A DNA stretch of 40,072 bases. Source: Rhizobacter sp. Root1221. GTDB taxonomy: Bacteria; Pseudomonadota; Gammaproteobacteria; Burkholderiales; Burkholderiaceae_C. The stretch covers positions 65,199 to 105,270 of the forward strand of contig NZ_LMDI01000024.1 of the NCBI RefSeq assembly GCF_001425785.1, in the 5' to 3' direction. Under the pieces are notes generated by a model. The model made no database searches, was not told the origin of the DNA, and saw only the letters and a program-made list of their open reading frames with translations. Below are positions 14,034-39,840 of the stretch, one piece after another. How positions within the stretch are numbered: the first letter of the stretch is position 1; every line of letters begins with the position of its first letter. Made by a program: the position numbers and the translations under genes.

Positions 14034-14062
14034 GCCATGTCTCCTTCCATTCCCGCTCCATC

Positions 14063-14098
14063 GCGGGCGGCCCGGGCCAGGGAGCCCGGACCGCCCGC
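14063..14098 (-). terminator. Strong hairpin between GH48 and the LemA-like gene
   Basis: A 15-base stem with one mismatch (14063-14077 with 14084-14098) and a six-base loop lies five bases past the GH48 stop codon. No T-run follows on the minus strand, so it may act as a message-stabilising or attenuating element inside the operon and not as a full terminator. Confidence 0.55.
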
Positions 14099-14102
14099 CA
14101 TG

Positions 14103-24898: not shown

Positions 24899-25600
24899 TC
24901 AGTCGGTCACCCTCACCCAGTCGTAATAGGCCGGGCCACTGCCGCCGTTGTACGTGCCGACGAACCCCACCGCGTTCGGCGTGTTGTTGCCCACCCAGTG
25001 GTTGAGCATCAGCCGCATCGGGGCGGAGATGGACGTGTTCACGCGCCGGAACTCCTGCTCCTGCCCGGCATCGTTCACGTGGAAGAAGCGCACGAACGTG
25101 GGCCGCCATTCGAAGCCGATGGTGCGCCAGCCTGTGGCGATGGAGAACTGCTGGAGGTTCTGCCGCCCGCCGGTCCACACGTTGGTGTGCAAGGTGCGGC
25201 CGCCGCGGATGAACTCGAGGTCGATCTCGAAGTGGTTGCCGGTGCCCGCCGTGCCGGTGTAGAGGAAAAAGGAGCTGTTGCCCCCTTCGATGGTGCCGGG
25301 TTGCAGGCGCGTCACGAACTTGCCGTACTGGAAGCTCTGCCACGTGCGTACTTCGCCGCACTTCACGTTGGACCGGTTCGAACTGTTCACGTTCAGCTGC
25401 AGGCCACCCCAGCCGGTGCGCCACACCTCGCTGTACGCGAAGGTGCATCCGAAAATGTCGCCGTTGGCCCAGTTGGCCGTCTCCCAACTGCCGCCGGGCC
25501 CGCCGGTGCCGTCGAATCCCTCGAAGAAATTGGCGGCGTGGGCGGCCGCGCCGCAGACCGTGGCAAGCGCCGCGACGGCGCCCAGGATGAGCTTGTTCAT
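24899..25600 (-). CDS. GH16 beta-glucanase, lichenase-like (233 aa)
   Basis: Secreted family 16 endo-beta-glucanase, closest in look to beta-1,3-1,4-glucanase (lichenase). A signal peptide (residues 1-22, ending AAAHA) precedes one catalytic beta-jelly-roll. The active site HFEIDLEF gives Glu125 (nucleophile), Asp127 and Glu129 (acid/base) in the E-x-D-x-E order used by lichenases, without the extra residue of laminarinases. FVTRLQPGTIEGGNSSFFLYTG is the usual upstream block. No carbohydrate-binding module is attached. The ATG at 25600 starts the signal peptide. It is the last gene of the minus-strand glucan-use run, 104 bases after the lipoprotein gene at 25705. A 62-base gap separates it from the convergent GGDEF-EAL gene. 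Confidence 0.9.
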   Translation of the reverse strand: MNKLILGAVAALATVCGAAAHAANFFEGFDGTGGPGGSWETANWANGDIFGCTFAYSEVWRTGWGGLQLNVNSSNRSNVKCGEVRTWQSFQYGKFVTRLQPGTIEGGNSSFFLYTGTAGTGNHFEIDLEFIRGGRTLHTNVWTGGRQNLQQFSIATGWRTIGFEWRPTFVRFFHVNDAGQEQEFRRVNTSISAPMRLMLNHWVGNNTPNAVGFVGTYNGGSGPAYYDWVRVTD

Positions 25601-25704: not shown

Positions 25705-26418
25705 TCAGTTGCTGAACGAGACGCGGCCGACGCTCAGGTCGTGGGCGCCTGCCGACACGGCGCTGTTGATCACGTCGACCGAGAACACACCTGCCTTGAC
25801 GGCAGCGACCGCACTGCCGGCGCCGTTGCAGTACTCGGGCAACGGGAAGCTCGTGCTGTCGAGGTCGATGACCACTTCGGATTGCGTGGAGTTCACCAGC
25901 GCCTGCGCGGTGGCCGTGCAGCCGTCGGCCGCCACCGGGTTCGGCTGCAGCTTGATCGTCAGCGTGGCGTCGGTGCTCGACTTGAGCTCGATGCGCAGCT
26001 TGCCGAACGAGGAGGCATTGAACGGCGTGATCGGTGCCGTGCCGGTGTTGTTAGGCGCATACAGGCGCAGGGCCGCGCCGGCAAAGGCCTGCGCACCGGT
26101 CAGCGACGTCGCGAACGTGACGGCGCCGGCCGCGAACGACACCGCCCCCAGCGTCTGCTCGTTCGATTTCTCGGCGAACGCATACGTTTCGACCTTGCCG
26201 ACTTCGCTCGTGTCGGTACTGTTCATCGGCGTGGCGAACGGTGTGCTGGTCGCGGGTGCCGGAGCCGGAGCCGGTGGCGTGCCGGCGGGCGGTGCGGACA
26301 CCGGCGGCGTGGCCGTGGGGGTGGTTTCGTCGTCGCCGCTGCCGCAGGCCGTCAACGCGACGGCAGCGAACAGGGCCAGCAGGCCGGCCTGGGTGGCCTT
26401 GTGGATCGGGTGTTTCAC
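25705..26418 (-). CDS. Secreted lipoprotein, member 1 of a three-paralogue family (237 aa)
   Basis: Predicted lipoprotein: signal peptide with lipobox LTAC (Cys25), then a threonine/proline/alanine linker (about 30-62) and a beta-rich domain to the end. The C-terminal 100 residues share a pattern with the proteins at 26512-27312 and 37868-38548: LRIELK, a later LTIKL strand, a GC motif (DGCTATAQAL), a VVIDL strand, a cysteine after PEY (PLPEYCN), and a closing VGRVSFS strand. This resembles carbohydrate-binding jelly-roll domains, but I recognise no named family. Its position between GH16 and other glucan-use genes suggests binding of a glucan at the cell surface or in the periplasm. Confidence 0.72.
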   Translation of the reverse strand: MKHPIHKATQAGLLALFAAVALTACGSGDDETTPTATPPVSAPPAGTPPAPAPAPATSTPFATPMNSTDTSEVGKVETYAFAEKSNEQTLGAVSFAAGAVTFATSLTGAQAFAGAALRLYAPNNTGTAPITPFNASSFGKLRIELKSSTDATLTIKLQPNPVAADGCTATAQALVNSTQSEVVIDLDSTSFPLPEYCNGAGSAVAAVKAGVFSVDVINSAVSAGAHDLSVGRVSFSN

Positions 26419-26478
26419 GGGAACTCCGGTGCGAGTGAGGGTGTCTCATAGTGGCGATGCCTCACCCGCCCCGCAGTG

Positions 26479-26496
26479 GCCGGCTTGCTTTCCGGC
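26479..26496. terminator. Small hairpin between paralogue genes
   Basis: A 5-base-pair stem (GCCGG 26479-26483 with CCGGC 26492-26496) lies in the 93-base gap between the paralogue genes at 26512 and 26418. It is weak and may not be functional. Confidence 0.25.
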
Positions 26497-26511
26497 TAGC
26501 GGATCTTGCGA

Positions 26512-27312
26512 TCAGTAGCACATCATCAGGCCGAGCCGGTTGCGCTCGCACACGACGTGGCGCCCCGGCGCTGCCGCGGCCACGGGCTTGGGCGACTCAA
26601 CCGCCTTCCTGGGTGCCTCCGGGGCCTTCGCGGGGCGCTGCCGGACGGGGGCCGACGCGGCTTGCACCGCCTCGCCGACAGGCGCGGAAGTCGTCCGCTG
26701 CGCCACCAGCTCGATGCGGCCCACGCGCAACACGTACGGACGAGCCGACGGTTCGTTGACGGTCACTTCGACGTGGGTCAGCGCCGCCAGCGTCTGCACG
26801 ACGGAGGCACCCTGCTCGCCGCAGTAGGTCTCCGGCGAAAACGCATCGAGCGGGATCACGTAGTCCTGCGGCTCGGCCGTCACGCGCTGCATCATCACCG
26901 GGTAACAACCCGCGGCCTGGATGCGGCGGTCGGGGCCCTTCAGGCGGATGCGCAGCACCTGTGGCGTGGCCGCGGCCAGCCGGATGCGCATCTGGCGCGC
27001 CGCGGAGGCATCCACCGGGTGTGCCAACGGGTTGGCGGCCACGTCCATGCCCAGCGTGAGCCAGCGGCTTCCTGACGCGTCACCGAGCCGGCCCGTGACC
27101 TGCAGCAGGCCGTCCGACACGGACAGCGATTCGAACCGCGCGTCGCCGGGTTTCTCGGACATCGCGATCGGGTTCACCGGCGCCCCAGCCGACGTGGTGG
27201 CAGGGGCCACGAAGTCGGCCCAGCGGAGGTCGGCGCCGAACGCGAAGGAGGCCGACAGGGTCACGAGGCACGAGGCCCCGGCAACGCGCAGCGCGCGGAA
27301 CAACAAGGGCAT
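26512..27312 (-). CDS. Secreted protein, member 2 of the three-paralogue family, with Pro/Ala-rich tail (266 aa)
   Basis: Exported protein (signal peptide 1-26, cleavage near FGA-DL, no convincing lipobox) with one beta-rich domain (about 27-195) and a 70-residue proline/alanine/lysine-rich tail ending in CERNRLGLMMCY. The domain strongly resembles the lipoprotein at 37868: both have LRIRLKG or LRVRLVG, then GCYPVxMQxVT, DYxIPLxAFxPE and a cysteine-glycine (YCG/HCG), and end on a VGxI strand. The tail may span the envelope or bind the cell wall. The ATG at 27312 starts the signal peptide, with a weak ribosome site. It follows the AraC-type regulator on the same strand (110 bases). Confidence 0.72.
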   Translation of the reverse strand: MPLLFRALRVAGASCLVTLSASFAFGADLRWADFVAPATTSAGAPVNPIAMSEKPGDARFESLSVSDGLLQVTGRLGDASGSRWLTLGMDVAANPLAHPVDASAARQMRIRLAAATPQVLRIRLKGPDRRIQAAGCYPVMMQRVTAEPQDYVIPLDAFSPETYCGEQGASVVQTLAALTHVEVTVNEPSARPYVLRVGRIELVAQRTTSAPVGEAVQAASAPVRQRPAKAPEAPRKAVESPKPVAAAAPGRHVVCERNRLGLMMCY

Positions 27313-27399
27313 GGGGTCGCTCGGCAGTGGGACATGGACGCCGTTTGTACCCACCCCATCGCGCCGTGTCCTGACCGGTCTTGCGAAGCGTCGCTGACC

Positions 27400-27415
27400 G
27401 CCCGCCGTGGCGGGC
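27400..27415 (-). terminator. Hairpin after the AraC-type regulator
   Basis: A GC-only 6-base-pair stem (27400-27405 with 27410-27415) with a four-base loop lies eight bases past the regulator stop codon on the minus strand. No clear T-run follows, so termination strength is uncertain. Confidence 0.4.
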
Positions 27416-27422
27416 CGTTCCG

Positions 27423-28397
27423 TCAACCGGGTCGCACACGGACCGGCATGCGCAACGCGCAGTCGACCCAGTCATCGCCCGGGGTCGAGACCTGGCGGTC
27501 GTACCGCTCGAAGAACTGGCCCTCGCCGAGCGCGTAGGGTGACTGAGGCAACCACCCGTTGAGCAGTGCATCCCACCCGCGCCCGATGTGGCGCGCAGGC
27601 CCGGTGTAGTGCAACGAGGCATACAGGCCTGCCGGCACGGTGCGGCGCAGCGGTCGCAGGCCCGGGTCGACCCAACCCGGAGGCACCTGGACGCAGGCGT
27701 CGAGCCGGCAGTGCGCCGGCGCCGTGATGGCGGGGTCGTCGACCCCCATCGACAACAGCGGTTGGCCGGTGACGTCCAGCGCCTCGGCCCACGCCAGGAA
27801 CCGGGTCCACAGCGGCTTGGCCGACACCGCGTAGTCGCCCCGCTCCCGCAGGTACAGCACCTCGATCGCCTCGTGGCGCTTGACGTCGATGCGGAACGGC
27901 GCGCCGGCCCAGCCATCGTTGGCGGACACCCGCCAGTTCACCCAGCCCCCATGGCGCCATTGCGTGGGTGTCATGCCGAAGTGATCGCGGAACGCCCGGG
28001 CGAACGCCTCCGACGACGCGAAGCCGCAGCCGAGCGACACGTCGGTCACCCGCTCGTCGCGGCAGTGGCGCAACCGGCCCGCGGCCGTTTCCAGCCGCCG
28101 CCGCCGCACGAACTCCTTGACGGTTTCGCCAGTCCACGCATGGAACAGGCGATGGAAATGAAACGGCGAGATCGCAGCGCGTCCGGCCAGGCAGTCGAGG
28201 CTCAGGTCACCCGCCAGGTTCAGGTCGACGAAGTCGAGCACCTGCTCCATTCGGCGGATGTGGTGGGCATGCAGCACCGGGCCGTCAGCACGGCGTGCCG
28301 GAGGTCCGATGGGCATGTCCGCGCCGACCAGCGTGGCCAGGCAAGGTACGGCGAGCGCCGCGTGAGGGGCCCCAACCGGTACGGCAATGGGATTCAT
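27423..28397 (-). CDS. AraC-family regulator with GyrI-like ligand domain (324 aa)
   Basis: Transcription factor with two AraC helix-turn-helix motifs at about residues 50-150 (LSLDCLAGRAAISPFHFHRLFHAWTG and VTDVSLGCGFASSEAFARAFRDHFGMTP) followed by a GyrI-like/AraC-effector-binding domain (about 160-320). Such Rob-type proteins sense small molecules through the C-terminal pocket. The first 45 residues are not typical. The ATG at 28397 follows GAGGA. It starts 31 bases after the ABC ATPase gene on the same strand and may be transcribed with the importer. That makes it a second regulator of this sugar locus besides LacI, but the target and ligand are unknown. Confidence 0.88.
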   Translation of the reverse strand: MNPIAVPVGAPHAALAVPCLATLVGADMPIGPPARRADGPVLHAHHIRRMEQVLDFVDLNLAGDLSLDCLAGRAAISPFHFHRLFHAWTGETVKEFVRRRRLETAAGRLRHCRDERVTDVSLGCGFASSEAFARAFRDHFGMTPTQWRHGGWVNWRVSANDGWAGAPFRIDVKRHEAIEVLYLRERGDYAVSAKPLWTRFLAWAEALDVTGQPLLSMGVDDPAITAPAHCRLDACVQVPPGWVDPGLRPLRRTVPAGLYASLHYTGPARHIGRGWDALLNGWLPQSPYALGEGQFFERYDRQVSTPGDDWVDCALRMPVRVRPG

Positions 28398-28428
28398 GGA
28401 TGTCCTCGGTGACGGGCCCGCCAGGGCC

Positions 28429-29511
<1,083 letters not shown>

Positions 29512-29547
29512 GGTGGATTTTGGATTCCGTGAAGCGGGAGAAGGCTC

Positions 29548-30450
29548 TCAGCCCTTGACTGCGCCGGCGGTGAGGCCTTCGATGAGGCGCCGCGAATAGA
29601 GGATGAACAGCACGAGCAGCGGCAGCACCGTGATGGCCGAGCCCGCGCTGATGGCGCCCCATGGCGTTTGGCCGGTGCCCTGCAGCGAACGCAGCACGAG
29701 CGGTGCGGTGAACATGTCGACGTCGCTCATCACCAGCAGCGCGCCCACGAAGTTGTTGTACGCGCCGATGAACGTGACGAGCCCGAGCGTGCCCATCGCC
29801 GGCCCGATCAGCGGCAGCACCACGCGCCAGTAGATGCCGAACTCGCCGCACCCGTCCATGCGCGCGGACTCCACCAGTTCGCGCGGCACGGCCGAGCCGA
29901 TGTACTGCCGCATGAGGAACACGCCAAACGCGGAACAGGCCCCCGGCACGATCAGCGCGCGCGTGGTGTTGAGCCAGTCGAGTTCCTTCATCAGCAGCAC
30001 GAACGGGATCATCCCGACGAATGCGGGCAGCAGCATCGTGGCCATCAAGCCGCCGAACAGCATCTGCTTGCCCGGGAACTCGTACATCGCGAACCCGTAG
30101 CCGCCCAGCGAGCAGAAGAACAGGTTGAGTGCCGTGGCCGCCCCGGCGATCCACAACGACAGCATCAGGCTGCGCCAGAAATGCGGCCGCTCGGCGACCA
30201 GCGCCTTCAGGTTGTCGAGGAAGGCGTCGCCGAACCACAGCGGTGGTGGCACCGAGAGGATGTCGGTGTTCGTGTGCGTGGCGAACACGAACATGAAGTA
30301 GAACGGCACCAGCATGATCACGGCGCCGAACAGCACCAAGGCGTAGGGCACCCAGGCCACCGGCCGGCGCAGCACCTTGGCCGCACGGCGCTGGAAGGGC
30401 GTCGGCAAGGCGATGGCGGTCGACGCCATCGAGGGGGATGACGAGAGCAT
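29548..30450 (-). CDS. Sugar ABC importer permease, MalG type (300 aa)
   Basis: Inner membrane permease of the CUT1 family with six predicted helices. The cytoplasmic EAA loop that docks the ATPase reads VESARMDGCGEFGIYWRVVLP. The C terminus ends in the usual SRRLIEGLTAGAVKG. It lies three bases after the MalF-type gene and is clearly cotranscribed with it. The substrate, probably a beta-gluco-oligosaccharide, is inferred only from neighbours. Confidence 0.93.
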   Translation of the reverse strand: MLSSSPSMASTAIALPTPFQRRAAKVLRRPVAWVPYALVLFGAVIMLVPFYFMFVFATHTNTDILSVPPPLWFGDAFLDNLKALVAERPHFWRSLMLSLWIAGAATALNLFFCSLGGYGFAMYEFPGKQMLFGGLMATMLLPAFVGMIPFVLLMKELDWLNTTRALIVPGACSAFGVFLMRQYIGSAVPRELVESARMDGCGEFGIYWRVVLPLIGPAMGTLGLVTFIGAYNNFVGALLVMSDVDMFTAPLVLRSLQGTGQTPWGAISAGSAITVLPLLVLFILYSRRLIEGLTAGAVKG

Positions 30451-30453
30451 GGT

Positions 30454-31485
30454 TCAGTCCTTCTTGCCGAGGTAGCGGTTGTTGAGCCACGTCAGCGCGG
30501 CGATCACCATGAACATGAGCCAGGCCACGGCCGAGGCGGTGCCGAAGTCACCGTCGGTGAGGCCGACCTTGTACATCTGCATGGCCACGGTCTCGGCCAC
30601 CTGGCCCACGCCACCGGACCCGCCGGTGAGGATGAACGGCTCCTCGAACAGCTGCAGGTTGCCGATGATGGTGAGCGTCACCGCGAACAGGATCATCGGG
30701 CGCAACATGGGCAGCGTGATGTAGCGGAACTGCTGCCACAGCCCGGCACCGTCGATGGTGGCGGCTTCGTACAGGTCCTTCGGGATGGTCTGCAGCGCGG
30801 AGAGGTACAGCACCGTGTTCCAGCCCACGAAGCGCCACCAGATGATGAAGGCCACGATGGGCCGGGTGTACTCCGGGCGGCCCCAGTCGATGTTCTCCGC
30901 CGGGAACAGCCAGGCGAGCAGCTTCACGCCGCCCACCTCGGCATGGGCCAGGCCGGTGAGCACCTGGTTGACCACGCCGAAGTCACGCGAGAACAGCGAC
31001 GAGAACACGAGCGTGATGGCCACCGTGTTGGTGATGTAGGGCAGGAAGTACATCGCGATGGCCGGGTTGCGCGCCCGGCGGAACTTCATGTGGATGAAGT
31101 ACGCAAGCGGGATCGCGATCAGGTGCTGCGGCAACCCCGACACCACCCCGAGCCAGAACGTGTTGTAGAGCGCACGCCAGAAGTCGAGGCCGTGCAGCTC
31201 CGCCCAGAATGCCCCGCTGAAGAACTGCGGCCACGGCAGCGCATCGAGCTGCAGCACGAACGCGTAGTTGCCCAACCCCTCCCACTTCATGCCCGCGACA
31301 CCCGCCGACAACTCCCAGCGGAAGAAGGACGCGTAGGCGGAGAACAGCAGCGGGAACAAGCCGAACGACACGAAGAGCACGAAGAACGGCGCCACGAAGA
31401 CATAAGGCATGTAGTGCCATGGCTTCAGGCCGCGGCGCCGCCGCGCCGCAGGAGAGGAAAGAGCGGGCATGGGAGAACGGGGCAT
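30454..31485 (-). CDS. Sugar ABC importer permease, MalF type (343 aa)
   Basis: First permease of the CUT1 importer, with six predicted transmembrane helices, an N-terminal helix after an arginine-rich start (about residues 28-50), and the EAA loop LYEAATIDGAGLWQQFRYITLP. At 343 residues it lacks the large extra periplasmic loop of E. coli MalF, as is common in CUT1 systems. The start may be the ATG at 31485 or the in-frame ATG six codons later. It follows the binding-protein gene by 21 bases. Confidence 0.92.
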   Translation of the reverse strand: MPRSPMPALSSPAARRRRGLKPWHYMPYVFVAPFFVLFVSFGLFPLLFSAYASFFRWELSAGVAGMKWEGLGNYAFVLQLDALPWPQFFSGAFWAELHGLDFWRALYNTFWLGVVSGLPQHLIAIPLAYFIHMKFRRARNPAIAMYFLPYITNTVAITLVFSSLFSRDFGVVNQVLTGLAHAEVGGVKLLAWLFPAENIDWGRPEYTRPIVAFIIWWRFVGWNTVLYLSALQTIPKDLYEAATIDGAGLWQQFRYITLPMLRPMILFAVTLTIIGNLQLFEEPFILTGGSGGVGQVAETVAMQMYKVGLTDGDFGTASAVAWLMFMVIAALTWLNNRYLGKKD

Positions 31486-31506
31486 CGGGGAACGAACGGC
31501 AGGTCT

Positions 31507-32754
31507 TTAGCGGCGCACGCGGCGCTCGATGGCTTTCTTCGCATCAGCCAGCGCCTGCGGCACGGCCTTGTCCTGTTCGAGCACCTTGTCGAACTCGGCG
31601 GCCACGACCTCGGCGGCGATGGGGTCGTAGCGGTCCACCGCGGTGGCGGGAATCGCCGAAGCGGCGACCTTCCACTGCTTGCGCGCGGCCTGCCCGCCGA
31701 GGAACGGCATCGGTTGGTCGACGAACGCATCGTTGGTGGCGTCGATCAACGCCGGGAAGGCGTCGAGTTCACGGAACGCGGCCAGTTGCACTTCCTTGTT
31801 CGTGGTCATGAACTTGATGAAGTCCCACGCGGCGGGCTTGTTCTTCGCGCCCTTCGGGATCGCGTAGAACGAACCGCCCCACGAGGCGCTGACCCCGCCC
31901 GGCAGGCCGGCCGCGCGCCACTGGCCCGCGGTCTCGGGCGCGATCCAGTTCTTCAGGTGGCCGGCGAGCCAGGCGCCCATCATCTCGGAGGCGACGGTGC
32001 CGCGCTTGAACCCTTCGCTCCATTCGTTGCTCCATGCACCGACCTTGGCGTCGATGCCGGCGGCGCGGGCGAGCTTGGCGGTTTCGAACGCGCGCACGAA
32101 CCGCGGTGAATCGACGAGCACCTTGCCCTTGTCGTCGAAGTAGATGCCCTCGCCGTTCTTGAGGCCGGAGCGCAGGATGATGTCCTTGATGGTGGCGGCG
32201 TTCGGTACCAGGTACGCCCCGGTCTTGGCCTTCAGCGTCTTGCCGGCGTCGATGTACGAGTCCCACGACTTGGTCAGCTGGGCTTCGGTGATGCCGGCCT
32301 TGTCCATCAGGTCCTTGCGGTAGAACAGGGCGCCGGGGCCGATGTCGGCCGGTACGGCGGCGAAGATGCCGCCGCGGCTCGTGGCCTGGGCGCTTGCGAA
32401 CGGGAAGAACTTCGGCCTGAGCGCCCCCGCGTCGTACGGCGGCTTCGACAGGTCCTCGACGCCACCACCCTCGGCCATCTTCGCCACGAAGCCGATCTCG
32501 ATGCCCATCACGTCGGGCAGGTTCGCGCCGGTGGCCAGGGCCGTCGTCATCGCGTTGTGGTGGTCACCGTAGCCGAGCGACACGAGCTTGATCTCCACGT
32601 CGGGCCGCACCTTCTTGTAGAGCGGAATGGCCGCCAGCACGGACCGGTCGAGGTCCTTGAACGACGCCACGGTCAACACCGTGGTTTCGGCCTGCGCGCC
32701 CACCGCCGCTGATGCCAACAGACCCGCGAAACCCACTTTCGAGATGAAACCCAC
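31507..32754 (-). CDS. Sugar-binding protein of the ABC importer, family 1 (415 aa)
   Basis: Periplasmic solute-binding protein that delivers sugar to the MalF/MalG-type permeases. Signal peptide residues 1-21 (FAGLLASAAVGAQA) are followed by ETTVLTVASF and the family-1 domain (VKIxLV.. type lobe with GANLPDVMGIEIGF near residues 70-85, and PADIGPGALFYRKDLMDKAG). GTG at 32754 is chosen because AAGGAG sits six bases before it and it begins directly at the signal peptide; an ATG nine codons upstream would include the ribosome site in the gene. A perfect 14-base LacI-type palindrome lies 48 bases upstream, so the importer operon is probably repressed by the neighbouring LacI protein. Confidence 0.92.
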   Translation of the reverse strand: MGFISKVGFAGLLASAAVGAQAETTVLTVASFKDLDRSVLAAIPLYKKVRPDVEIKLVSLGYGDHHNAMTTALATGANLPDVMGIEIGFVAKMAEGGGVEDLSKPPYDAGALRPKFFPFASAQATSRGGIFAAVPADIGPGALFYRKDLMDKAGITEAQLTKSWDSYIDAGKTLKAKTGAYLVPNAATIKDIILRSGLKNGEGIYFDDKGKVLVDSPRFVRAFETAKLARAAGIDAKVGAWSNEWSEGFKRGTVASEMMGAWLAGHLKNWIAPETAGQWRAAGLPGGVSASWGGSFYAIPKGAKNKPAAWDFIKFMTTNKEVQLAAFRELDAFPALIDATNDAFVDQPMPFLGGQAARKQWKVAASAIPATAVDRYDPIAAEVVAAEFDKVLEQDKAVPQALADAKKAIERRVRR

Positions 32755-32802
32755 GTCTTGCTCCTTGAAAGGACTGAACACTGCCTCGCATGACAGAGTT
32801 CA

Positions 32803-32816
32803 TGCAAGCGCTTGCA
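32803..32816. promoter_or_regulatory. LacI operator of the importer operon
   Basis: TGCAAGCGCTTGCA is a perfect palindrome with the central CG expected for LacI-family binding. It lies 48 bases before the binding-protein start codon and is identical to the site at 34025-34038 before GH1. The LacI gene stands between the two copies. Confidence 0.85.
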
Positions 32817-32872
32817 GCAAAGTCTAATCGGGGCGTTCGCGGGGGTGTGTGAGTAGGAACCCTAGACCGGCG

Positions 32873-33880
32873 TCAGGCCGGCAGCGCGCGTGTGGATTCC
32901 CGCACGATCAGCTCCAGCCGGGCCAGTGCGGACCGCGGCGGCTGGCGCCCCTCGATCAGCGCGACGACGGCGTTCGCGGCCTCCCGGCCGAGTTCGCGCA
33001 GCGGCTGGCGCACCGACGTGAGCGGCGGGATGCAGTACGACGAGTGCGGCAGGTCGTCGTAGCCCACCAGCGAGATGTCGCGCGGAATGACGATGCCGCG
33101 CCGGTGCATGGCGAGCATCGCGCCGTAGGCCGAGTCGTCGTTGGCCGCGAACACCCCGGTGAACGGACGCCCGCGATCGAGCAGGATGTTCATCGCGGTC
33201 ACCCCGCCCGGCTCGACGTAGTTGCCGGACGCGACCAGCTGGTCGTCGAACGGGATGCCGGCCTGCGCGAGGGTGTCGCAGTAGCCGCGCAGGCGTTCGT
33301 CGGCGTCGAGCCGGCTGGGCGGGCCACTGATGAACGCGATGCGCTTGTGGCCGAGCTCGACCAGGTGGCGCACCGCACGGCAGGCGCCGTCGTAGTGGTC
33401 GAAGCCGAGCGAGTGCACCTGCTCCAGCGCGCTGTGGCGGCCCATCAGCACCATCGGCACGCCATTGGCGTGGCGTGCCATCACGCTGTCTTCGAGGCCG
33501 CCCATGATCAGCACGACCCCGTCGACACCGCGCCCCATCAGTGACGTCAGGCGGCGGGCCTCGTCGGCCGGATCCCAGTGGCCGCTCACGAAGATGGCTT
33601 CGTAGTTGTGGCCGATGAGCCCGTCCTCCACGCCGCGCATGGCCTCGTTGAAGAACGAGCTGAGGATTTCCTGCGTCATGACACCGACGGTCATGGTGCG
33701 GCCCTTGGCCAGCCCCCGGGCCACCAGGTTCGGGCGGTAGTTCAGCTGATCGATGCTGCTGTCGATGGCCGCCTTCTTGTCGGGCGACACCGGGTGCGTG
33801 CCGCTGAGGTAGCGGGAAACCGTGCTGGTCGACACGCCGGCCAGGCGCGCGACCGCTTCCAGGGTGACGTTGGAGGCCAT
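32873..33880 (-). CDS. LacI-family transcriptional regulator (335 aa)
   Basis: DNA-binding repressor with an N-terminal helix-turn-helix (residues 5-25, VTLEAVARLAGVSTSTVSRYL), the hinge region YRPNLVARGLAKG that inserts into the CG centre of operators, and a periplasmic-binding-protein-like sugar-sensing domain (about 60-335, with GVFAANDDSAYGAMLAM and ISLVGYDDLPHSSYCIPPLTSVRQP). Flanked by two identical palindromes, it most likely controls both the importer operon on its left and the GH1-GH26-porin operon on its right. The inducer would be an imported oligosaccharide or its product. Confidence 0.95.
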   Translation of the reverse strand: MASNVTLEAVARLAGVSTSTVSRYLSGTHPVSPDKKAAIDSSIDQLNYRPNLVARGLAKGRTMTVGVMTQEILSSFFNEAMRGVEDGLIGHNYEAIFVSGHWDPADEARRLTSLMGRGVDGVVLIMGGLEDSVMARHANGVPMVLMGRHSALEQVHSLGFDHYDGACRAVRHLVELGHKRIAFISGPPSRLDADERLRGYCDTLAQAGIPFDDQLVASGNYVEPGGVTAMNILLDRGRPFTGVFAANDDSAYGAMLAMHRRGIVIPRDISLVGYDDLPHSSYCIPPLTSVRQPLRELGREAANAVVALIEGRQPPRSALARLELIVRESTRALPA

Positions 33881-34024
33881 GGGCGGTGAGGATGGGAAAA
33901 GGGAAGCGCCAGATGATAGCGCCTGTCATCGCCCCGCCGGAAGAACGCGGCGCCAGCCCCACACGCCGCTCCTCGATAACCCTCGGTTGAGGCGGGATCC
34001 GCAAGTTCGGCTAGGCAGCCTCCT
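33881..34024. promoter_or_regulatory. Divergent promoter region between LacI and GH1
   Basis: Non-coding stretch between divergent genes. It holds an interrupted inverted repeat (GATGA ... TCATC, 33912-33930) close to the LacI start and a second imperfect repeat around 33974-33995. I cannot assign -35/-10 hexamers with confidence. Confidence 0.35.
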
Positions 34025-34038
34025 TGCAAGCGCTTGCA
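34025..34038. promoter_or_regulatory. LacI operator of the GH1 operon
   Basis: TGCAAGCGCTTGCA, a perfect 14-base palindrome identical to 32803-32816, lies 47 bases before the GH1 start codon. Same sequence and nearly same spacing to a start codon support joint control of both operons. Confidence 0.85.
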
Positions 34039-34085
34039 CAGCCCGATAAGGTGACGCCATTCCTTCCAGATCGCAGCCCGTCATC

Positions 34086-35483
34086 ATGAGTTCCTTGCCC
34101 ATCCGATTCCCCGCCGATTTCCTCTGGGGATCCGCCACGTCCGCCTACCAGATCGAGGGCGCCGCGGCCACCGACGGCCGCACCCCCAGCATCTGGGACA
34201 CGTTCGCCAGGACGCCGGGCTGCGTGGAAGGCGGCGACACCGGCGACGTCGCCTGCGACTCGTACCACCGCGTCGAGGAGGACGTGGCCCTGCTCAAGCA
34301 GATGGGCGCACGCGTGTACCGGTTCTCGATCTCGTGGTCGCGCGTGATGCCCGAAGGGCGGGGCGCCACGAACCCCGCCGGCATCGCCTACTACCGCCGG
34401 TTGATCGCGCTGCTGCACGAGGCCGGCATCGCGCCGATGGTGACGCTGTACCACTGGGACCTGCCGCAGTGCCTGCACGACGAGGGCGGCTGGCTCAACC
34501 GGCAGACCGCCCACGACTTCGCCGCCTACGCCAACCGGATGTTCGAGGTGTTCGGCGAGACCGTGCCCTACTGGTTCACCATCAACGAACCGTGGTGTGT
34601 GTCGTTCCTGTCGCACGCCATGGGCCACCACGCCCCCGGCGCACGCGACCTGCAGCAGGCCCTCACCGTGGCACACCACACGCTGCTCGCCCACGGCCTC
34701 GCGGTCAAGGCGTTCCGCCAGCGCCAGCTGGGCGGCAAGATCGGCATCGCCCCGAACGTCGACTGGCGCGAGCCGTTCTCCCAGCACCCGGACGACGTGG
34801 CAGCCAGCGAACGCGGGCTCGACTGGTTCAACCGCTGGTTCCTCGACCCGCTGTACCACGGCCGCTACCCGGAAGCGCTGCAGGCGCACTACGCGCGCCT
34901 GGGCGCCCACGTGCCGGTGCAGGACGGTGACATGGCACTCATCTCGATGCCCACCGACATGCTGGGCATCAACTTCTACACGGGCAGCTACGCCATGGCC
35001 CGGCACACACCGGTCGCGCTCCCCGAGCAGCCCGACGCAATGGCCAAGATCGACGCGGTGCTGGACCTCGCCACGGTCAACGTGCCCGGGTTCGCCAAGA
35101 CCGACATCGGCTGGGACATCTTCCCCGAGGCCTTCTACAAGGTGCTGCTGTGGCTGCGCGACGAATACGGCAACCCGCCGGTGTTCATCACCGAAAACGG
35201 CGCATGTGACAACACCGGCCCGTCCGACGATGGCCAGGTGCATGACGCGGTGCGCGTGGCGTACTACCATCGGCACGTGATCGCGCTGAACCGGGCTCTG
35301 CGTTCGGGCTGCGACCTGCGCGGGTACACCGCATGGTCGCTGATCGACAACTTCGAATGGGCCTTCGGCTACGGCAAGCGGTTCGGCCTCGTGCACGTCG
35401 ATTTCACGACGCTCGCACGCACGCCGAAGGACAGCTTCCGCTGGTTGCAGCGCCTGATCGCCGATGGCGGCTGCGAGGCCTGA
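34086..35483 (+). CDS. GH1 beta-glucosidase (465 aa)
   Basis: Family 1 retaining beta-glucosidase, cytoplasmic since there is no signal peptide. It starts with FPADFLWGSATSAYQIEGA, has the acid/base Glu168 in TINEPWC and the nucleophile Glu370 in FITENGA, plus YHWDLPQ and the late aglycone block SLIDNFEWAFGYGKRFGLVHVD. Length and order are standard. It would hydrolyse cellobiose or other beta-glucosides brought in by the importer. It is first gene of a plus-strand operon; the next start codon follows the stop after one base. Confidence 0.96.
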   Translation: MSSLPIRFPADFLWGSATSAYQIEGAAATDGRTPSIWDTFARTPGCVEGGDTGDVACDSYHRVEEDVALLKQMGARVYRFSISWSRVMPEGRGATNPAGIAYYRRLIALLHEAGIAPMVTLYHWDLPQCLHDEGGWLNRQTAHDFAAYANRMFEVFGETVPYWFTINEPWCVSFLSHAMGHHAPGARDLQQALTVAHHTLLAHGLAVKAFRQRQLGGKIGIAPNVDWREPFSQHPDDVAASERGLDWFNRWFLDPLYHGRYPEALQAHYARLGAHVPVQDGDMALISMPTDMLGINFYTGSYAMARHTPVALPEQPDAMAKIDAVLDLATVNVPGFAKTDIGWDIFPEAFYKVLLWLRDEYGNPPVFITENGACDNTGPSDDGQVHDAVRVAYYHRHVIALNRALRSGCDLRGYTAWSLIDNFEWAFGYGKRFGLVHVDFTTLARTPKDSFRWLQRLIADGGCEA

Positions 35484-35484
35484 C

Positions 35485-36768
35485 ATGAAGACATCCCTGG
35501 TGATGTGGGCCGCGGCGCTGCTCGCGGCGGCGCTGCCGGCGCAGGCGGACGTCACGGTCCGGGTCGACCCCGCCGCCGTCGGCGCCCCGTTGCCGCGGGC
35601 GGTGTTGCGCGGCTTCAACTTTGGCAACTGGATGGCCGTGGCCGACCACGAGGCCGCGCTGGCCGAAGTGCCGGCCGGGGCGTTGCGCTTCCCCGGCGGC
35701 AACGTGGGCGACGACCAGGACATGGACGAAGCCACGCTCGACACGTTCGCAAGCCTGCTGACGCTGGTGCGTGGCAAGCCTGAACTGATGATCCAGACGC
35801 GGGTGTTCGAAGGCCGTGTGGACCGGCCCGCCGCCAACCAGCCGGAAGATGCCGCCCGTGCGGTGCGCCTCGCCCGTGAGCGGGGCCTGGTGGTGCCCTA
35901 CTGGGAGATCGGCAACGAGCCCGACCTGTACGCCACCGTGCGCGGTGACCCGCGCTGGAACGCCGACCGCTACTGCGACGTCTTCCGCGCGCAGGCGGCG
36001 GCCATCCGCCGCGAGGACCCCAAGGCCCTCGTGGCCGGACCCGGCACGTCGGCCGCCGAACCTGGCGCCACCGCCTTCGTGAAGGCATTCGTCAAACGCT
36101 GCGGCGACGTGGTGGACCTGCTCACCTGGCACGTGTACCCGACCGGCGGCGACGGCACCGAGGCCGATGCGCTCGCGTCGGTGTCGCAGGTGGACACGCT
36201 GCTGCGCGACTACACCGCGCTGTGGAAGAGCCCGGCGACGAACCCGCTCGGCTACCAGCGGCCCATGCGGTATGGCGTGACCGAATACGGTCTGTCATGG
36301 CGCACCGACCGGCCGCGTTTCCTCGCCGACCAGACCAACGCGCTGTGGTCGGTGGAAGCAGCGCTGCGCATGGCGCAGGGTGGCATCACGTTGGCGCACT
36401 ACTTCGCCTACCAGGGCACCGGGTACCACGGGCTGCTCGATGCCGGCGGTGTGCCCCGCCCGACCCACTACGCCTTCCGCCTGCTCGGCGACCTGAGCGG
36501 GCGCTTCGTGCCGGCCCGCTCCGACGACCCCCTGGTGTGGGCGCATGCGGCGCGTGATGGCGGCCGCCTGGGCGTGATCCTCATCAACACCCATGCCGAA
36601 CCCCGCGCGGTGCGACTCGACGCTGGCGCTGCCCGCGTCACCCAGGTGCGCTGGTTCAACGAGGCCATCGCCGAGGCGGAAGACCCCGTCGCCGAACTCG
36701 CGCCCGGATCCCTGCTGACCCTGCCGGCTCGCGCCATGGCCTTCATCTCGTTGGAACTTGCTCCATGA
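35485..36768 (+). CDS. Secreted clan GH-A glycoside hydrolase, GH51/GH39-like (427 aa)
   Basis: Exported enzyme with a TIM-barrel of clan GH-A. A signal peptide (1-21, ending PAQA) is followed by RGFNFGNWM, a GALRFPGGNVGDD block, acid/base Glu145 in WEIGNEPDLY, LTWHVYPTGGDG, and a candidate nucleophile Glu267 in GVTEYGLSW. A small beta-domain ends the protein (about 345-427). The layout recalls alpha-L-arabinofuranosidases (GH51) and GH39-type enzymes. I cannot fix the family or the sugar by eye. Its stop overlaps the GH26 start (ATGA), so they are translationally coupled. Confidence 0.78.
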   Translation: MKTSLVMWAAALLAAALPAQADVTVRVDPAAVGAPLPRAVLRGFNFGNWMAVADHEAALAEVPAGALRFPGGNVGDDQDMDEATLDTFASLLTLVRGKPELMIQTRVFEGRVDRPAANQPEDAARAVRLARERGLVVPYWEIGNEPDLYATVRGDPRWNADRYCDVFRAQAAAIRREDPKALVAGPGTSAAEPGATAFVKAFVKRCGDVVDLLTWHVYPTGGDGTEADALASVSQVDTLLRDYTALWKSPATNPLGYQRPMRYGVTEYGLSWRTDRPRFLADQTNALWSVEAALRMAQGGITLAHYFAYQGTGYHGLLDAGGVPRPTHYAFRLLGDLSGRFVPARSDDPLVWAHAARDGGRLGVILINTHAEPRAVRLDAGAARVTQVRWFNEAIAEAEDPVAELAPGSLLTLPARAMAFISLELAP

Positions 36769-37829
36769 CCCCGAACCTCCCCAGCGATCCCACCCGCCGC
36801 CAGCTGCTCGCCGGCGGTGCCGCCACCGCACTGGCCCTGGCCCTTCCGCTCGGCGCCTGTGCCGGCGGCGGCTCGGGCGCCCCGAATGCCGAGGACGTCT
36901 TGTCCCTGCCCGTTCGCGTCGACACGAACACCAGCGCCCAGCAAGGCGTGTTCTTCGGCCTGTTCAAGGAAGCGGCGCTGACCGAGGTGGTGGCCGACTG
37001 CCAGAACGACTACCGCATCAAGCCCGCCTCGGCGATGTGGTTCACGCGCTTCGGTTCGCCCTTCCCCGAGTCCGCGATCCGCTACCTGGCACAACAGGGC
37101 ATCGCCGCGCAGGTCACGTGGGAACCCTGGGCCGAGCGCAACGAGGCCATCCCGTTGGCAGACATCGTGGCCGGCAAGTGGGACGCCTACCTCGCCGAGT
37201 ACGGTGCCGCCGCGGCAGCGCTCGACCTGCCGTTCATGCTGCGCTGGGGCCATGAGTTCAACGGCGACTGGTACCCGTGGTGCACCGTGCGCCAGGGCCA
37301 GTCCACCGACCTGTACGTGAAGGCCTACCGGCGTGTGGTGGAACGGATGCGCGCGGCCGGCGCCAGGAAGGTGCAGTGGGTCTGGTGTTTCAACAATGAG
37401 AGCACTCCTGCCGGCGCCTGGAACGCCCCGAAGCTCGCCTGGCCGGGCGACGACGTGGTCGACTGGGTGGGCATCGACGGCTACAACTTCGGCACGAGCC
37501 AGTCGTGGTCGCGGTGGACCCCGTTCCGCGATGTGTTCGGGAATGCGCTGGCCGCCGCTGCCGACATCGCGCCCAGGAAACCCGTGATCCTCGCCGAGAT
37601 GGCGTCGTCGGAGAACGGCGGGGACAAGGCCGCGTGGATCACGCAGATGTTTGCCGACCTGGCCACGCTGCCCCAGGTGCGCGCCTTCACCTGGTTCGAC
37701 CTGATGAAGGAAACGAGCTGGGCCATCACCTCGAGCGAGGCCGCCTGGGCGGCGATGGCCAAGGGCCTGCGCGGCGACTACATCCGCGGCAACGGCGCCG
37801 CACTGCTTTCCATCGCCAGCCCGCGTTGA
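36765..37829 (+). CDS. GH26-like endo-glycanase (mannanase or lichenase), Tat-type lipoprotein (354 aa)
   Basis: Family 26-like endo-acting hydrolase. The N terminus has a twin-arginine motif (TRRQLL, residues 10-15) and a lipobox LGAC (Cys32), suggesting Tat export and lipid anchoring. Catalytic residues are acid/base Glu164 in LRWGHEFNGDWYPW and nucleophile Glu278 in VILAEMASSENGG, both in GH26 contexts. WVWCFNNES is the strand between them. GH26 holds mannanases and beta-1,3-1,4-glucanases. The nearby GH16 and GH1 make a mixed-linkage glucan target plausible, and mannan cannot be excluded. It overlaps the gene before it by 4 bases. Confidence 0.85.
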   Translation: MTPNLPSDPTRRQLLAGGAATALALALPLGACAGGGSGAPNAEDVLSLPVRVDTNTSAQQGVFFGLFKEAALTEVVADCQNDYRIKPASAMWFTRFGSPFPESAIRYLAQQGIAAQVTWEPWAERNEAIPLADIVAGKWDAYLAEYGAAAAALDLPFMLRWGHEFNGDWYPWCTVRQGQSTDLYVKAYRRVVERMRAAGARKVQWVWCFNNESTPAGAWNAPKLAWPGDDVVDWVGIDGYNFGTSQSWSRWTPFRDVFGNALAAAADIAPRKPVILAEMASSENGGDKAAWITQMFADLATLPQVRAFTWFDLMKETSWAITSSEAAWAAMAKGLRGDYIRGNGAALLSIASPR

Positions 37830-37867
37830 GCGGACCGGTGCCCCTCCCCCTCGACCGAAGTCTTCCC

Positions 37868-38548
37868 ATGAACCACCTTCTTCGCCCGATGCGACTCCTC
37901 GCCCTGCCCGGGGCCGTTGCCATGTGCCTGGGTGCCTGCGCGCTGGCCCCGACGGCCGTGGCACCAACGCCTGCGGCTGCCACGCCCGCACCTGCTCCGT
38001 CGGCGCCCGCGGCCAAGCCATTCGCCACGTTCACCAACGCGGCCACCACCGTCCAGGGTGGGACGTTCGACGGATTCGACTACGCCGAAAAGGCAGGGGA
38101 CGCCGGCCTGCTTGCCGTCACCCCGGCCGCTGGCGCGGTGCGGGTCACCGGCTTCATCGGCACGGCCAAGGGCAGCACGTGGGCCGGCATCGGCCTGACG
38201 GTGCAAGGCGCACCGTCAGGCGCCCAGGACCTCAGCCGATACACGGCCGTGCGGGTCTCGCTCGCATCCGCGTCGGCCAAGACCCTGCGTGTCCGTCTCG
38301 TGGGCACCGACGCCGCCACGTTGGCCAGCGGCTGCTACCCGGTGTTCATGCAGGCCGTGACACCGCAGCTGCGTGACTACGACATCCCGATGGCGGCCTT
38401 TGCGCCCGAAGGCCACTGCGGCAGCAACGCCCGCACCACCGCGGCCACGCTGCCGGCAGTAGTGGCCATCGAGGTGGCCGATCCCACGGTGGCCGCGCAA
38501 CGCCGCGACGTCGACTTCCAGGTCGGAGCGATCTCGCTCCCGCGCTGA
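37868..38548 (+). CDS. Secreted lipoprotein, member 3 of the three-paralogue family (226 aa)
   Basis: Predicted lipoprotein: signal with lipobox LGAC (Cys24), a proline/alanine-rich linker (about 25-55), then one beta-rich domain. Shared with the protein at 26512-27312 are the order LRVRLVG, GCYPVFMQAVTP, DYDIPMAAFAPE, HCG, and a final VGAISLP strand; the same frame is weaker in the lipoprotein at 25705. It stands between GH26 and the LamB-like porin, so a glucan-binding role at the outer membrane, feeding the porin or enzymes, is a reasonable guess. I recognise no named family. Confidence 0.72.
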   Translation: MNHLLRPMRLLALPGAVAMCLGACALAPTAVAPTPAAATPAPAPSAPAAKPFATFTNAATTVQGGTFDGFDYAEKAGDAGLLAVTPAAGAVRVTGFIGTAKGSTWAGIGLTVQGAPSGAQDLSRYTAVRVSLASASAKTLRVRLVGTDAATLASGCYPVFMQAVTPQLRDYDIPMAAFAPEGHCGSNARTTAATLPAVVAIEVADPTVAAQRRDVDFQVGAISLPR

Positions 38549-38643: not shown

Positions 38644-39840
38644 TTGAAACCCACCTCCCTCTCCCTCGCCGCGGCCCTCCTGGTCGCAGGCACCGGCGCC
38701 ACCGCCGCCACCCTCGAGTACTCCGGCTACATGCGGGCCGGCATCGGCATCAACGCGCGGGGCGGCACGCAGGTCTGCTACGGCCTGCCGGGCGCCGACA
38801 CCAAATGGCGCCTGGGCAACGAATGCGACTACACCATCGAGCCCACCTTCAACGCCAAGCTCGGATCGTTCGAAGGATCCGACTGGAACGTGCTCGTGAT
38901 GCCGGGGATCTACCGCGCATGGGGTGACAGTTCGGAACTGGGCACGAGCGAACTGATCGCCCGCTTCGGCCAGGTCTACACCTACGGCAACCGCATCGCC
39001 GCGCTGGGTGGTGGCAAGGCGTGGGCAGGCCGCCGCTTCTACAACCGCCTGCAGACCGGCATCAACGACCAGTTCCTCGAAAAGAACGACGGTGACGGCG
39101 CCGGGCTCGAGGACATCAACGTCGGCTTCGGCAAGGTCAGCGCAGCTGTCATGCTCAACCCGCAGAACGCGGCCACGAACAACCGCCTGTCGATCCCGCT
39201 GCGGCTCACGAACGTCAAGACGTTGCCCAATGGCGAACTGTCGGTGTACGCCACCGCATCCACGCAGGTGAAGTCGCGCAACCGCGTGACGCAGGCGCTG
39301 GCCGCCGACGAGTCCGACGGCATGGCGCTGGGCATCTACCAGACGATCGGCGGCACGCTCGGCGGCGAGACGCTGCTGGGGGTCAAGTACGACCGCCAGG
39401 GTGAAGTGCGCAACAGCCGGGTGGTCGCGCAACAAAGCGGTTCGATCACCAAGTCGACCCGCTTCGACCTGCTCGGCGAATACCGCGTGGCCACGAACGC
39501 CGCCGGCCAGGACAGCACCTGGACCGCCCTCGGCGGCCGCACCGACACCCACATCACCGGCCCCTTCCGCGTGCTGGCCGAGCTGGGCTCCGACCGCGTG
39601 AAACCCGACGGGGCCGCGGCCCGTTCGATGACCAAGTTCACGCTGGCCGGCGCCATCTCGGCCGGTGCGGATGCGTGGTCGCGCCCCACCATCCGCCTCT
39701 TTGTCACCCATGCCGTGTGGAACGACGCCGCGCGCCAGGTGCTGAACCAGACCTGGGGAAGCGGCGAACGCCTGCAGCAGGTCTATGGCGACAAGCGTTC
39801 CGGCACGAGCGTGGGGGTGCAGACCGAAGCGTGGTGGTGA
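38644..39840 (+). CDS. LamB/maltoporin-like outer membrane carbohydrate porin (398 aa)
   Basis: Outer membrane beta-barrel porin of the LamB type. The signal peptide (1-21, ATA-ATLEY) leads into YSGYMRAGIGINARGG and a KWRLGNECDYTIEPTFNAKL block matching the start of maltoporins (GYxRSGIG, YRLGNE). Alternating amphipathic strands run to a C-terminal aromatic ending (TEAWW), as needed for BAM-mediated insertion. TTG at 38644 is the likely start, with AGGA eight bases upstream. As last gene of the GH1 operon it probably admits gluco- or manno-oligosaccharides. Confidence 0.9.
   Translation: MKPTSLSLAAALLVAGTGATAATLEYSGYMRAGIGINARGGTQVCYGLPGADTKWRLGNECDYTIEPTFNAKLGSFEGSDWNVLVMPGIYRAWGDSSELGTSELIARFGQVYTYGNRIAALGGGKAWAGRRFYNRLQTGINDQFLEKNDGDGAGLEDINVGFGKVSAAVMLNPQNAATNNRLSIPLRLTNVKTLPNGELSVYATASTQVKSRNRVTQALAADESDGMALGIYQTIGGTLGGETLLGVKYDRQGEVRNSRVVAQQSGSITKSTRFDLLGEYRVATNAAGQDSTWTALGGRTDTHITGPFRVLAELGSDRVKPDGAAARSMTKFTLAGAISAGADAWSRPTIRLFVTHAVWNDAARQVLNQTWGSGERLQQVYGDKRSGTSVGVQTEAWW

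What the first reader, a model, noticed from the sequence alone, without database searches (positions are those of the whole stretch)
25705..38548. A family of three related secreted proteins threaded through one glucan-use locus
Proteins at 25705-26418, 26512-27312 and 37868-38548 share one C-terminal beta-rich domain: LRI/VxL strand, GC motif, D-x-x-IPL strand, a cysteine (YCG/HCG/YCN) and a final VGxI strand. Members 2 and 3 share GCYPVxMQxVT and DYxIPxxAFxPE almost intact. Two have lipoboxes; the third has a plain signal and a Pro/Ala-rich tail. Each sits beside glucan enzymes, importer genes or the porin, yet none matches a carbohydrate-binding family I know. Their number and placement suggest SusD-like capture proteins for a betaproteobacterial system. 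The shared pattern is seen directly; the binding role is inference.
Basis: partly seen in the sequence, partly recalled or inferred. Interest (0 to 1): 0.72.

Follow-up and report, generated by a model that had tools for sequence, protein, structure and literature searches.

The report
Stand-alone glucan-binding-like secreted protein family
Three related secreted proteins in a betaproteobacterium have the predicted fold of known sugar-binding modules and sit, in several relatives too, in a gene cluster that appears built to digest mixed-linkage beta-glucan (the cereal and lichen kind), so they probably hold that polysaccharide for the cell's enzymes, though binding has not been tested.

Summary
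In detail: P1 (25705-26418, minus), P2 (26512-27312, minus) and P3 (37868-38548, plus) share one ~172-residue domain (BLASTP E 1e-32, 4e-11, 5e-7). No window copy reaches a curated Pfam or NCBIfam cut-off. The AlphaFold model of the P2 domain (pLDDT 86) is a beta-sandwich; best solved matches are CIA30/NDUFAF1 and Clostridium thermocellum CBM11. Profile comparison links the family to CIA30; one distant member passes that Pfam cut-off. The family was found in 11 of 399 sampled genomes of the taxonomic family, each time beside glycoside hydrolase genes. In 5 of 8 P2 orthologues the domain is fused to a GH16 domain lacking the catalytic Asp; the window copy has no GH16 part. The window GH16 and GH26 have lichenases as nearest solved relatives; the GH26 and a second-locus GH5 match the two catalytic modules of endoglucanase H, whose third module is CBM11. 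One palindrome heads both operons. Best reading: divergent CBM11/CIA30-like, mostly lipid-anchored binders of mixed-linkage beta-glucan. Capture is plausible; 'SusD-like' holds at most as analogy. Binding is untested.

The parts
25705..26418 (-). P1: lipoprotein (lipobox LTAC), Pro/Ala linker, CBM11/CIA30-like domain 25714-26238
26512..27312 (-). P2: signal peptide, CBM11/CIA30-like domain 26707-27222, Pro/Ala tail ending CERNRLGLMMCY; without the GH16-like domain present in 5 of 8 orthologues
37868..38548 (+). P3: lipoprotein (lipobox LGAC), CBM11/CIA30-like domain 38021-38539
24899..25600 (-). GH16, nearest solved relatives are beta-glucanases of the 1,3-1,4 type; FEIDLEF motif present
27423..28397 (-). 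AraC-type regulator with GyrI-like domain
28429..29511 (-). ABC importer ATPase (MalK-like)
29548..30450 (-). ABC permease
30454..31485 (-). ABC permease
31507..32781 (-). solute-binding protein of the importer
32803..32816 (.). operator-like palindrome TGCAAGCGCTTGCA before the solute-binding gene
32873..33880 (-). LacI-family regulator
34025..34038 (.). operator-like palindrome TGCAAGCGCTTGCA between LacI and GH1
34086..35483 (+). GH1 (beta-glucosidase family)
35464..36768 (+). GH39-like protein (below the Pfam cut-off)
36765..37829 (+). GH26, nearest solved relative is the GH26 module of endoglucanase H; twin-arginine plus lipobox start
38644..39840 (+). LamB porin

Best explanation
The three proteins are paralogous, mostly lipid-anchored, non-catalytic glycan-binding proteins built on a divergent CBM11/CIA30-type beta-sandwich. 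[quoted passage not shown] Proposed working: P1 and P3 (and P2, in five orthologues joined to a GH16 domain that has lost its catalytic Asp) hold glucan chains at the outer membrane next to the GH16 and GH26 endoglucanases; released oligosaccharides pass LamB, are picked up by the solute-binding protein and imported by the ABC transporter, and are split by GH1. Shown here by computation: homology, predicted fold, conserved gene order, fusion to GH16, shared operator-like sites. Inferred: sugar binding, ligand, regulation, outer-membrane placement and which face of the membrane.
For: Fold: pLDDT 86.4, pTM 0.85; Foldseek best PDB matches CIA30/NDUFAF1 (E 1.1e-6) and CtCBM11 (three entries at E 1.8e-6 to 5.2e-6, query TM 0.59-0.64; a fourth, NMR, at 1.6e-4), then agarase modules, CBM30, CBM4, CBM29, CBM86 and a Bacteroides surface glycan-binding protein. 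Profile link to CIA30: hhalign probability 91.8, E 7.3e-7, against at most 0.43 in 40 column-shuffled controls and 0.6 reversed; one of 38 domains over the PF08547 cut-off. Context: 11 of 11 genomes with the domain have a copy on a stretch with glycoside hydrolase genes; in 10 of the 11 these include an endo-type family (GH16, GH26, GH5 or GH10), for G514 only a 25-residue GH16 match at the contig end. No copy in six sister importer stretches that show GH1 but no match to the GH16, GH26 or GH39-like proteins. Fusion: 5 of 8 P2 orthologues carry GH16 over the Pfam cut-off. Substrate: window GH16 nearest to 1,3-1,4-beta-glucanases; GH26 nearest to endoglucanase H, E 8e-43, other GH26 no better than 3.1e-5; second-locus GH5 (L042, one of three tested) nearest to endoglucanase H, E 2.7e-80, other endoglucanases from 9e-72. 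Regulation: the palindrome occurs 3 times in the 6.87-Mb genome (backward control 1), twice here, and twice, exact, in each of 8 genomes holding the locus. dN/dS 0.11-0.21 for the three domains in one genome pair.
Against: No binding data. No window copy reaches the Pfam CBM11 or CIA30 cut-offs. One genome, G689, has a copy beside GH1, LamB and an importer ATPase with no endo-enzyme on its 8.5-kb contig, as in the sister loci that lack the domain. In G570 the neighbours include GH10 and GH43, xylan-type families (recalled), beside three GH5, so ligands may differ within the family. The best-conserved aromatic (column 54, aromatic in 38 of 38) aligns with the CIA30 'GGF' motif and need not touch sugar; no ligand residues could be mapped. 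CIA30 proteins work in protein assembly. GH26 is missing from L046 and L047, which keep P1-P3.
Confidence: 0.66

Rival explanations
1. Scaffold, not lectin: like CIA30/NDUFAF1 the domain has become a protein-protein adaptor that docks the GH16/GH26 enzymes or LamB at the outer membrane, without binding sugar itself.
For: CIA30/NDUFAF1 is the top fold match and the only profile family reached. Several copies per locus and a conserved tail motif on P2 orthologues could serve interactions.
Against: The CBM11, CBM30, CBM4 and CBM29 matches lie within a factor of 200 in E-value of the best one; fusion to GH16 and co-occurrence with endo-enzymes are the usual setting of CBMs.
Confidence: 0.17
2. Periplasmic oligosaccharide holders (a variant of the best reading): the lipoproteins face the periplasm and buffer oligosaccharides that have passed LamB, before the solute-binding protein takes them.
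For: P3 is followed directly by lamB; G689 has a copy beside LamB, importer ATPase and GH1 with no endo-enzyme seen; outer-membrane lipoproteins face the periplasm by default in many proteobacteria (recalled); P2 has no lipid anchor in the window.
Against: Six sister importer stretches with solute-binding protein, permeases and GH1, four of them with LamB, show no copy; in 10 of 11 genomes the family accompanies polymer-cutting families.
Confidence: 0.12
3. SusD-like capture proteins in the strict sense: lids or partners of an outer-membrane transporter.
For: Position beside lamB (P3) and the importer (P1, P2).
Against: Beta-sandwich rather than the helical SusD fold (SusD fold recalled); no TonB-dependent receptor among the 20 proteins scanned.
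Confidence: 0.04
4. Binders of another glycan (glucomannan, cellulose, xylan, xyloglucan), or of a different one each, the GH16/GH26 neighbours being misleading (overlaps with the best reading).
For: P1 and P2 form separate clades and differ in conserved residues; the G570 locus has GH10 and GH43; the same contig as the window locus carries GH48 and GH9 with CBM2 domains.
Against: Nearest solved relatives of the window GH16 and GH26 are 1,3-1,4-beta-glucanases and the GH26 of endoglucanase H.
Confidence: 0.2

Closest known systems
CBM11 (Clostridium thermocellum Lic26A-Cel5E / endoglucanase H; PDB 1v0a, 6r31, 6r3m)
   Same: Predicted fold (Foldseek E 1.8e-6 to 5.2e-6 for these three, TM up to 0.64 query side, 0.66 target side). 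The window GH26 and the GH5 of the second locus have the GH26 and GH5 modules of endoglucanase H as nearest solved relatives (that both names mean one enzyme is recalled).
   Different: 8% identity, no PF03425 match; here separate secreted proteins, several per locus, instead of one module of a cellulosomal enzyme; the conserved cysteine pair (38 and 35 of 38) was not compared with CBM11.
CIA30 / NDUFAF1 (PF08547)
   Same: Best fold match, hhalign probability 91.8 over 97 columns, one family member over the Pfam cut-off. A review already notes that NDUFAF1 resembles CBM11 (PMC4992684, passages).
   Different: Window copies give no match; secreted and mostly lipidated; no VMGG motif as in the 14 bacterial CIA30 sequences used (frames chosen by that motif; A3).
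CBM112 (Bacteroides GH26 beta-mannanases and putative surface glycan-binding proteins; PMC13357471: abstract, section 21 and passages)
   Same: A former domain of unknown function in a polysaccharide locus, found both attached to enzymes and in putative surface binders.
   Different: Mostly Bacteroidota, mannan-specific, found mainly in PULs; not compared by sequence or structure here.
BoSGBP-MLG-A/B of the Bacteroides ovatus mixed-linkage glucan locus (PMC8612152: passages)
   Same: Binding proteins beside a GH16 endo-beta-glucanase for the same proposed substrate; BoSGBP-MLG-A had a binding profile like CtCBM11.
   Different: BoSGBP-MLG-A is a SusD homologue in a system with a SusC-like TonB-dependent transporter; here a beta-sandwich family with LamB and an ABC importer.

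Membership tests
CBM11 (PF03425) | Profile match to the family | tested here: not met
   PF03425 absent from hmmscan of the 3 proteins at E<=10 and from the families matched by 38 domains; 0 in the own genome, a search whose 14 control genomes also gave nothing
CBM11 (PF03425) | Beta-sandwich fold like CtCBM11 | tested here: met
   Foldseek of P2 domain model: 6r3m E 1.8e-6, 6r31 TMq 0.64, 1v0a
CBM11 (PF03425) | Binding of mixed-linkage beta-1,3-1,4-glucan through a concave-face aromatic platform (recalled) | not testable with these tools
   No coordinates available for residue mapping; no binding assay
CIA30 (PF08547) | Profile match over the gathering cut-off (24 bits) | tested here: inconclusive
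   Of 38 domains 4 match PF08547 at E<=10: L050 second half 26.2 bits passes, L046 18.9, L047 17.0, L039 14.7 do not; window copies none
CIA30 (PF08547) | Same fold and profile-profile similarity | tested here: met
   7zkq best Foldseek match; hhalign 91.8
Carbohydrate-binding module (any) | Module joined to or co-encoded with a carbohydrate-active enzyme | tested here: met
   Fused to PF00722 in 5 of 8 P2 orthologues; beside glycoside hydrolase genes in 11 of 11 genomes
Carbohydrate-binding module (any) | Demonstrated carbohydrate binding | not testable with these tools
   Needs purified protein
SusD-like | Helical SusD fold | tested here: not met
   P2 domain model is mainly beta; fold of SusD recalled
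SusD-like | Partner SusC TonB-dependent receptor encoded alongside | tested here: not met
   None among the 20 neighbouring proteins scanned; LamB is the porin; part of the window was not scanned

The most novel reading that the evidence does not exclude
A TonB-free counterpart of the Sus-type capture system: three lineage-specific CBM11-like receptors, two lipid-anchored and one (P2) that in relatives is a pseudo-GH16 fusion, form a surface station that feeds a LamB porin and an ABC importer with mixed-linkage glucan fragments, and the modules that C. thermocellum carries in one polypeptide (GH26, GH5, CBM11) are here dispersed over separate genes under related operators.
Probability: 0.3. 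Interest if true: 0.62.

Novelty: new variant of a known kind. Interest (0 to 1): 0.47.

Why it matters
If the family binds glucan it is a candidate new carbohydrate-binding family, and it would show how a betaproteobacterium may hold polysaccharide without SusC/SusD. It also links CIA30, known for respiratory complex assembly, to a glycan-use setting through sequence profiles as well as fold. The conserved loci, the paralogue clades and the fused and unfused P2 forms give a ready set of proteins for a binding test.

Tried and rejected
Rejected: chance similarity; strict SusD kinship. Dropped rows: 10 of the 21 genomes (their listed rows E 5.3e-5 to 8.8e-4), one genome (G293, E 1.9e-4) and three weak rows of the own genome, because none of the fetched stretches (about 3 kb each) matches the 38-domain profile; one further weak row, in G562, was not rechecked. 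Two fragments of a frame-split copy in L050 were left out of the 38-domain alignment. From the eight importer stretches, L089 (3.6 kb, no copy) was too short to count and L090 (G570, with copies) is the same locus as L050; six remain. Those six were compared only with window proteins, not scanned for other enzyme families.

Led nowhere: plasmid records and viral contigs, no match; PDB sequence search with P3 (two unrelated rows, E 0.34 and 0.7) and with the profile (none); profile search in a class sample found only the own genome of 369; the order sample found no real member outside the own genome of 300. The AlphaFold run on the full P2-GH16 orthologue was poor (pLDDT 46) and is not used; P1 and P3 were not modelled. 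Whether the GH16 part of P2 was lost in the window lineage or gained elsewhere could not be settled: the tree puts the window P2 first and the unfused L046/L047 pair beside a fused one with weak support (82/59). The CIA30 comparison was first run with two sequences in the wrong frame (probability 84.6) and repeated. PF03425 in a phylum sample: 5 of 259 genomes, 1 over cut-off; PF08547: 18 of 259, 17 over; used only to collect CIA30 sequences. Literature: one paper holds both CIA30 and CBM11, a complex I review; no listed paper describes a bacterial glycan locus with CIA30 proteins or such a betaproteobacterial locus (searches; listings only); the library holds open-licence papers only.
Full report
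OBSERVATION. The three ORFs are real. P1 and P2 lie on the minus strand, P3 on the plus strand. P2-P3 are 38% identical over 173 residues (E 1e-32), P2-P1 33% over 107 (E 4e-11), P3-P1 27% over 194 (E 5e-7). A profile from 13 P2/P3-type and second-locus domains, window P2 and P3 included but no P1-type row, matches three of 294 window frames, P1 at E 2.3e-19. P1 and P3 carry lipoboxes; P2 has an ordinary signal and a Pro/Ala-rich tail ending in CERNRLGLMMCY.

SURROUNDINGS. On the minus strand, in order of transcription: LacI, solute-binding protein, two permeases, ATPase, AraC/GyrI regulator, P2, P1, GH16. On the plus strand, divergent from LacI: GH1, GH39-like, GH26, P3, LamB. The palindrome TGCAAGCGCTTGCA stands before the solute-binding gene (32803) and between LacI and GH1 (34025). 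It occurs three times in the 6.87-Mb genome, the same pattern read backward once, and twice, exact, in each of eight genomes with this locus (window, L039, L040+L041, L043, L044, L046, L047, L049); with up to two mismatches it is absent from four sister importer loci scanned and from L048, L050 and L051. This suggests that both arms answer to one regulator; that P1 and P2 belong to the minus-strand operon is inferred from spacing and strand.

DISTRIBUTION. Of 399 genomes sampled from the taxonomic family, 21 had a match at E<=0.001; 10 were weak matches without the domain profile, leaving 11, in six genera. The order sample (300 genomes) and the class sample (369) gave no further real member; the samples are partial. 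The gene order GH16-P1-P2-AraC-importer-LacI-GH1-GH39-GH26-P3-LamB is complete in L039 and L044; other loci lack parts or the fetched stretch ends: no GH26 in L046 and L047, no importer or GH1 match in L043, two contigs in G562. A second locus in three genomes (L042, L045, L049) has LacI, a GH5 and three P genes, the first with two domains in tandem; near the GH5 start it carries a variant palindrome, TGCAATCGATTGCA, twice in L042 and L049, once plus a near variant in L045. G570 has LacI, three GH5, GH1, GH10, two P genes (one split over frames, one tandem) and, further on, GH43 and an importer. G514 is a contig end with P1, a 25-residue GH16 match and an importer. G689 is an exception: a P gene with LamB, importer ATPase and GH1, no endo-enzyme on its 8.5-kb contig, which ends inside GH1. 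Six sister importer stretches (solute-binding protein, permeases, ATPase and GH1 in all six, LacI match in five, LamB in four) have no match to the GH16, GH26 or GH39-like proteins of this locus and no copy of the domain. So the family follows polymer-cutting enzymes in 10 of 11 genomes and is not a fixed part of the importer type. In the tree P1 (8 rows, 95/92) and P2 (8 rows, 100/99) are clades, two second-locus genes form clades of three (100/99 each), and window P3 is unresolved beside six other P3-type rows. dN/dS between L046 and L047 is 0.13, 0.11 and 0.21 for the P1, P2 and P3 domains.

FUSION. Five of eight P2 orthologues (L039, L041, L043, L044, L049) continue after the domain into a GH16 domain above the Pfam cut-off (22.8 to 33.2 bits against 22), then a Pro/Ala tail; the window copy, L046 and L047 do not. 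All eight end in CERNx(2,3)[GD]LMMC[YFH]. Against a solved beta-1,3-glucanase (2hyk) the L052 copy reads GEIVMLE where the enzyme has GEIDIME; all five have V, T or A in place of the Asp, and L044 has Asp for the last Glu. The catalytic roles of these residues are recalled; an inactive or weak enzyme is inferred.

FOLD. AlphaFold2 with five aligned sequences (window and L052 only) gave pLDDT 86.4 and pTM 0.85 for the P2 domain. Foldseek against the PDB: NDUFAF1/CIA30 (7zkq, E 1.1e-6), C. thermocellum CBM11 (6r3m, 6r31, 1v0a), then agarase modules, CBM30, CBM4, CBM29, CBM86 and a Bacteroides surface glycan-binding protein; enterovirus capsid jelly rolls, an insecticidal-toxin beta domain and a flagellar sheath protein also appear at weaker scores. 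Sequence profiles agree: hhalign to 14 bacterial CIA30 sequences gives 91.8% and E 7.3e-7, against at most 0.43% in 40 shuffled and 0.6% in one reversed control. One distant member passes the CIA30 cut-off at 26.2 bits; three others reach 14.7-18.9; the window copies do not match. Two cysteines are conserved (38 and 35 of 38 rows), possibly a disulfide.

SUBSTRATE. Window GH16: the five best solved relatives are beta-glucanases, mostly named 1,3-1,4 (E 5e-24 to 9e-21), motif FEIDLEF present. Window GH26: endoglucanase H (C. thermocellum Lic26A, a lichenase; recalled) at E 8e-43, other GH26 no better than 3.1e-5. GH5 of the second locus (L042): endoglucanase H again, E 2.7e-80, another endoglucanase at 9e-72. 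The third module of that enzyme is CBM11 (title of 1v0a); CtCBM11 was crystallised with mixed-linkage tetrasaccharides (titles of 6r31/6r3m) and had a binding profile on barley and lichenan glucans like that of a Bacteroides mixed-linkage binder (PMC8612152, passages). Four lines (GH16, GH26, GH5, P fold) thus point the same way for this locus; G570's GH10 and GH43 warn that other members may have other ligands. The own genome has no match to that GH5 nor to PF03425 or PF08547; those searches had no positive control.

INTERPRETATION. Most likely these are stand-alone glycan-binding proteins for mixed-linkage beta-glucan. They would work like CBMs or surface glycan-binding proteins; they are not shown to be CBM11 (profile test failed) and not SusD-like by predicted fold. 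A protein-scaffold role remains the main rival because of CIA30. Which membrane face the lipoproteins occupy is open.

NOVELTY. The window copies are not covered by Pfam or NCBIfam models, and the profile finds no solved structure by sequence; one distant member crosses the CIA30 threshold. Fold and setting are known kinds; the multi-paralogue, stand-alone, LamB-linked arrangement looks new within the limits of the literature searches named under Tried and rejected.

Noticed in passing
window 10543-17162: GH9 with CBM3, fn3 and CBM2, a LemA-family protein, and GH48 with CBM2 stand together: a cellulase set, GH48 being unusual (recalled) for a betaproteobacterium.
   Followed up: no
window 36765-37829: The GH26 protein begins with a twin-arginine motif and a lipobox (RRQLLAGG...LGAC), so it may itself be a Tat-exported lipoprotein.
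   Followed up: no
window 26512-26560 and P2 orthologues (L039, L041, L043, L044, L046, L047, L049): A short C-terminal motif, CERNx(2,3)[GD]LMMC[YFH], ends all eight P2 proteins after a Pro/Ala-rich linker, with or without the GH16 part; function unknown.
   Followed up: partly
L119 about 1501-1514 (G000:C6:144152-144165): The only other genomic copy of the operator-like palindrome lies about 30 bases before a likely lipoprotein start; the rest of that gene reads N here.
   Followed up: no
L050 7147-7892: A family copy in G570 is split over two overlapping frames, a frameshift or sequencing error; described only.
   Followed up: no
L042 9859-11172, L045 9115-10518, L049 12431-13789, L050 8983-10350: Lipoproteins with two family domains in tandem; the second half in L050 is the member that crosses the CIA30 cut-off.
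   Followed up: partly
window 27423-28397: An AraC regulator with a GyrI-like ligand-binding domain stands between the importer ATPase and P2 in the window, L039, L041, L044, L046 and L047.
   Followed up: no
L048 3093-3791: In G689 a caspase-like (Peptidase_C14) gene stands directly downstream of the P gene.
   Followed up: no
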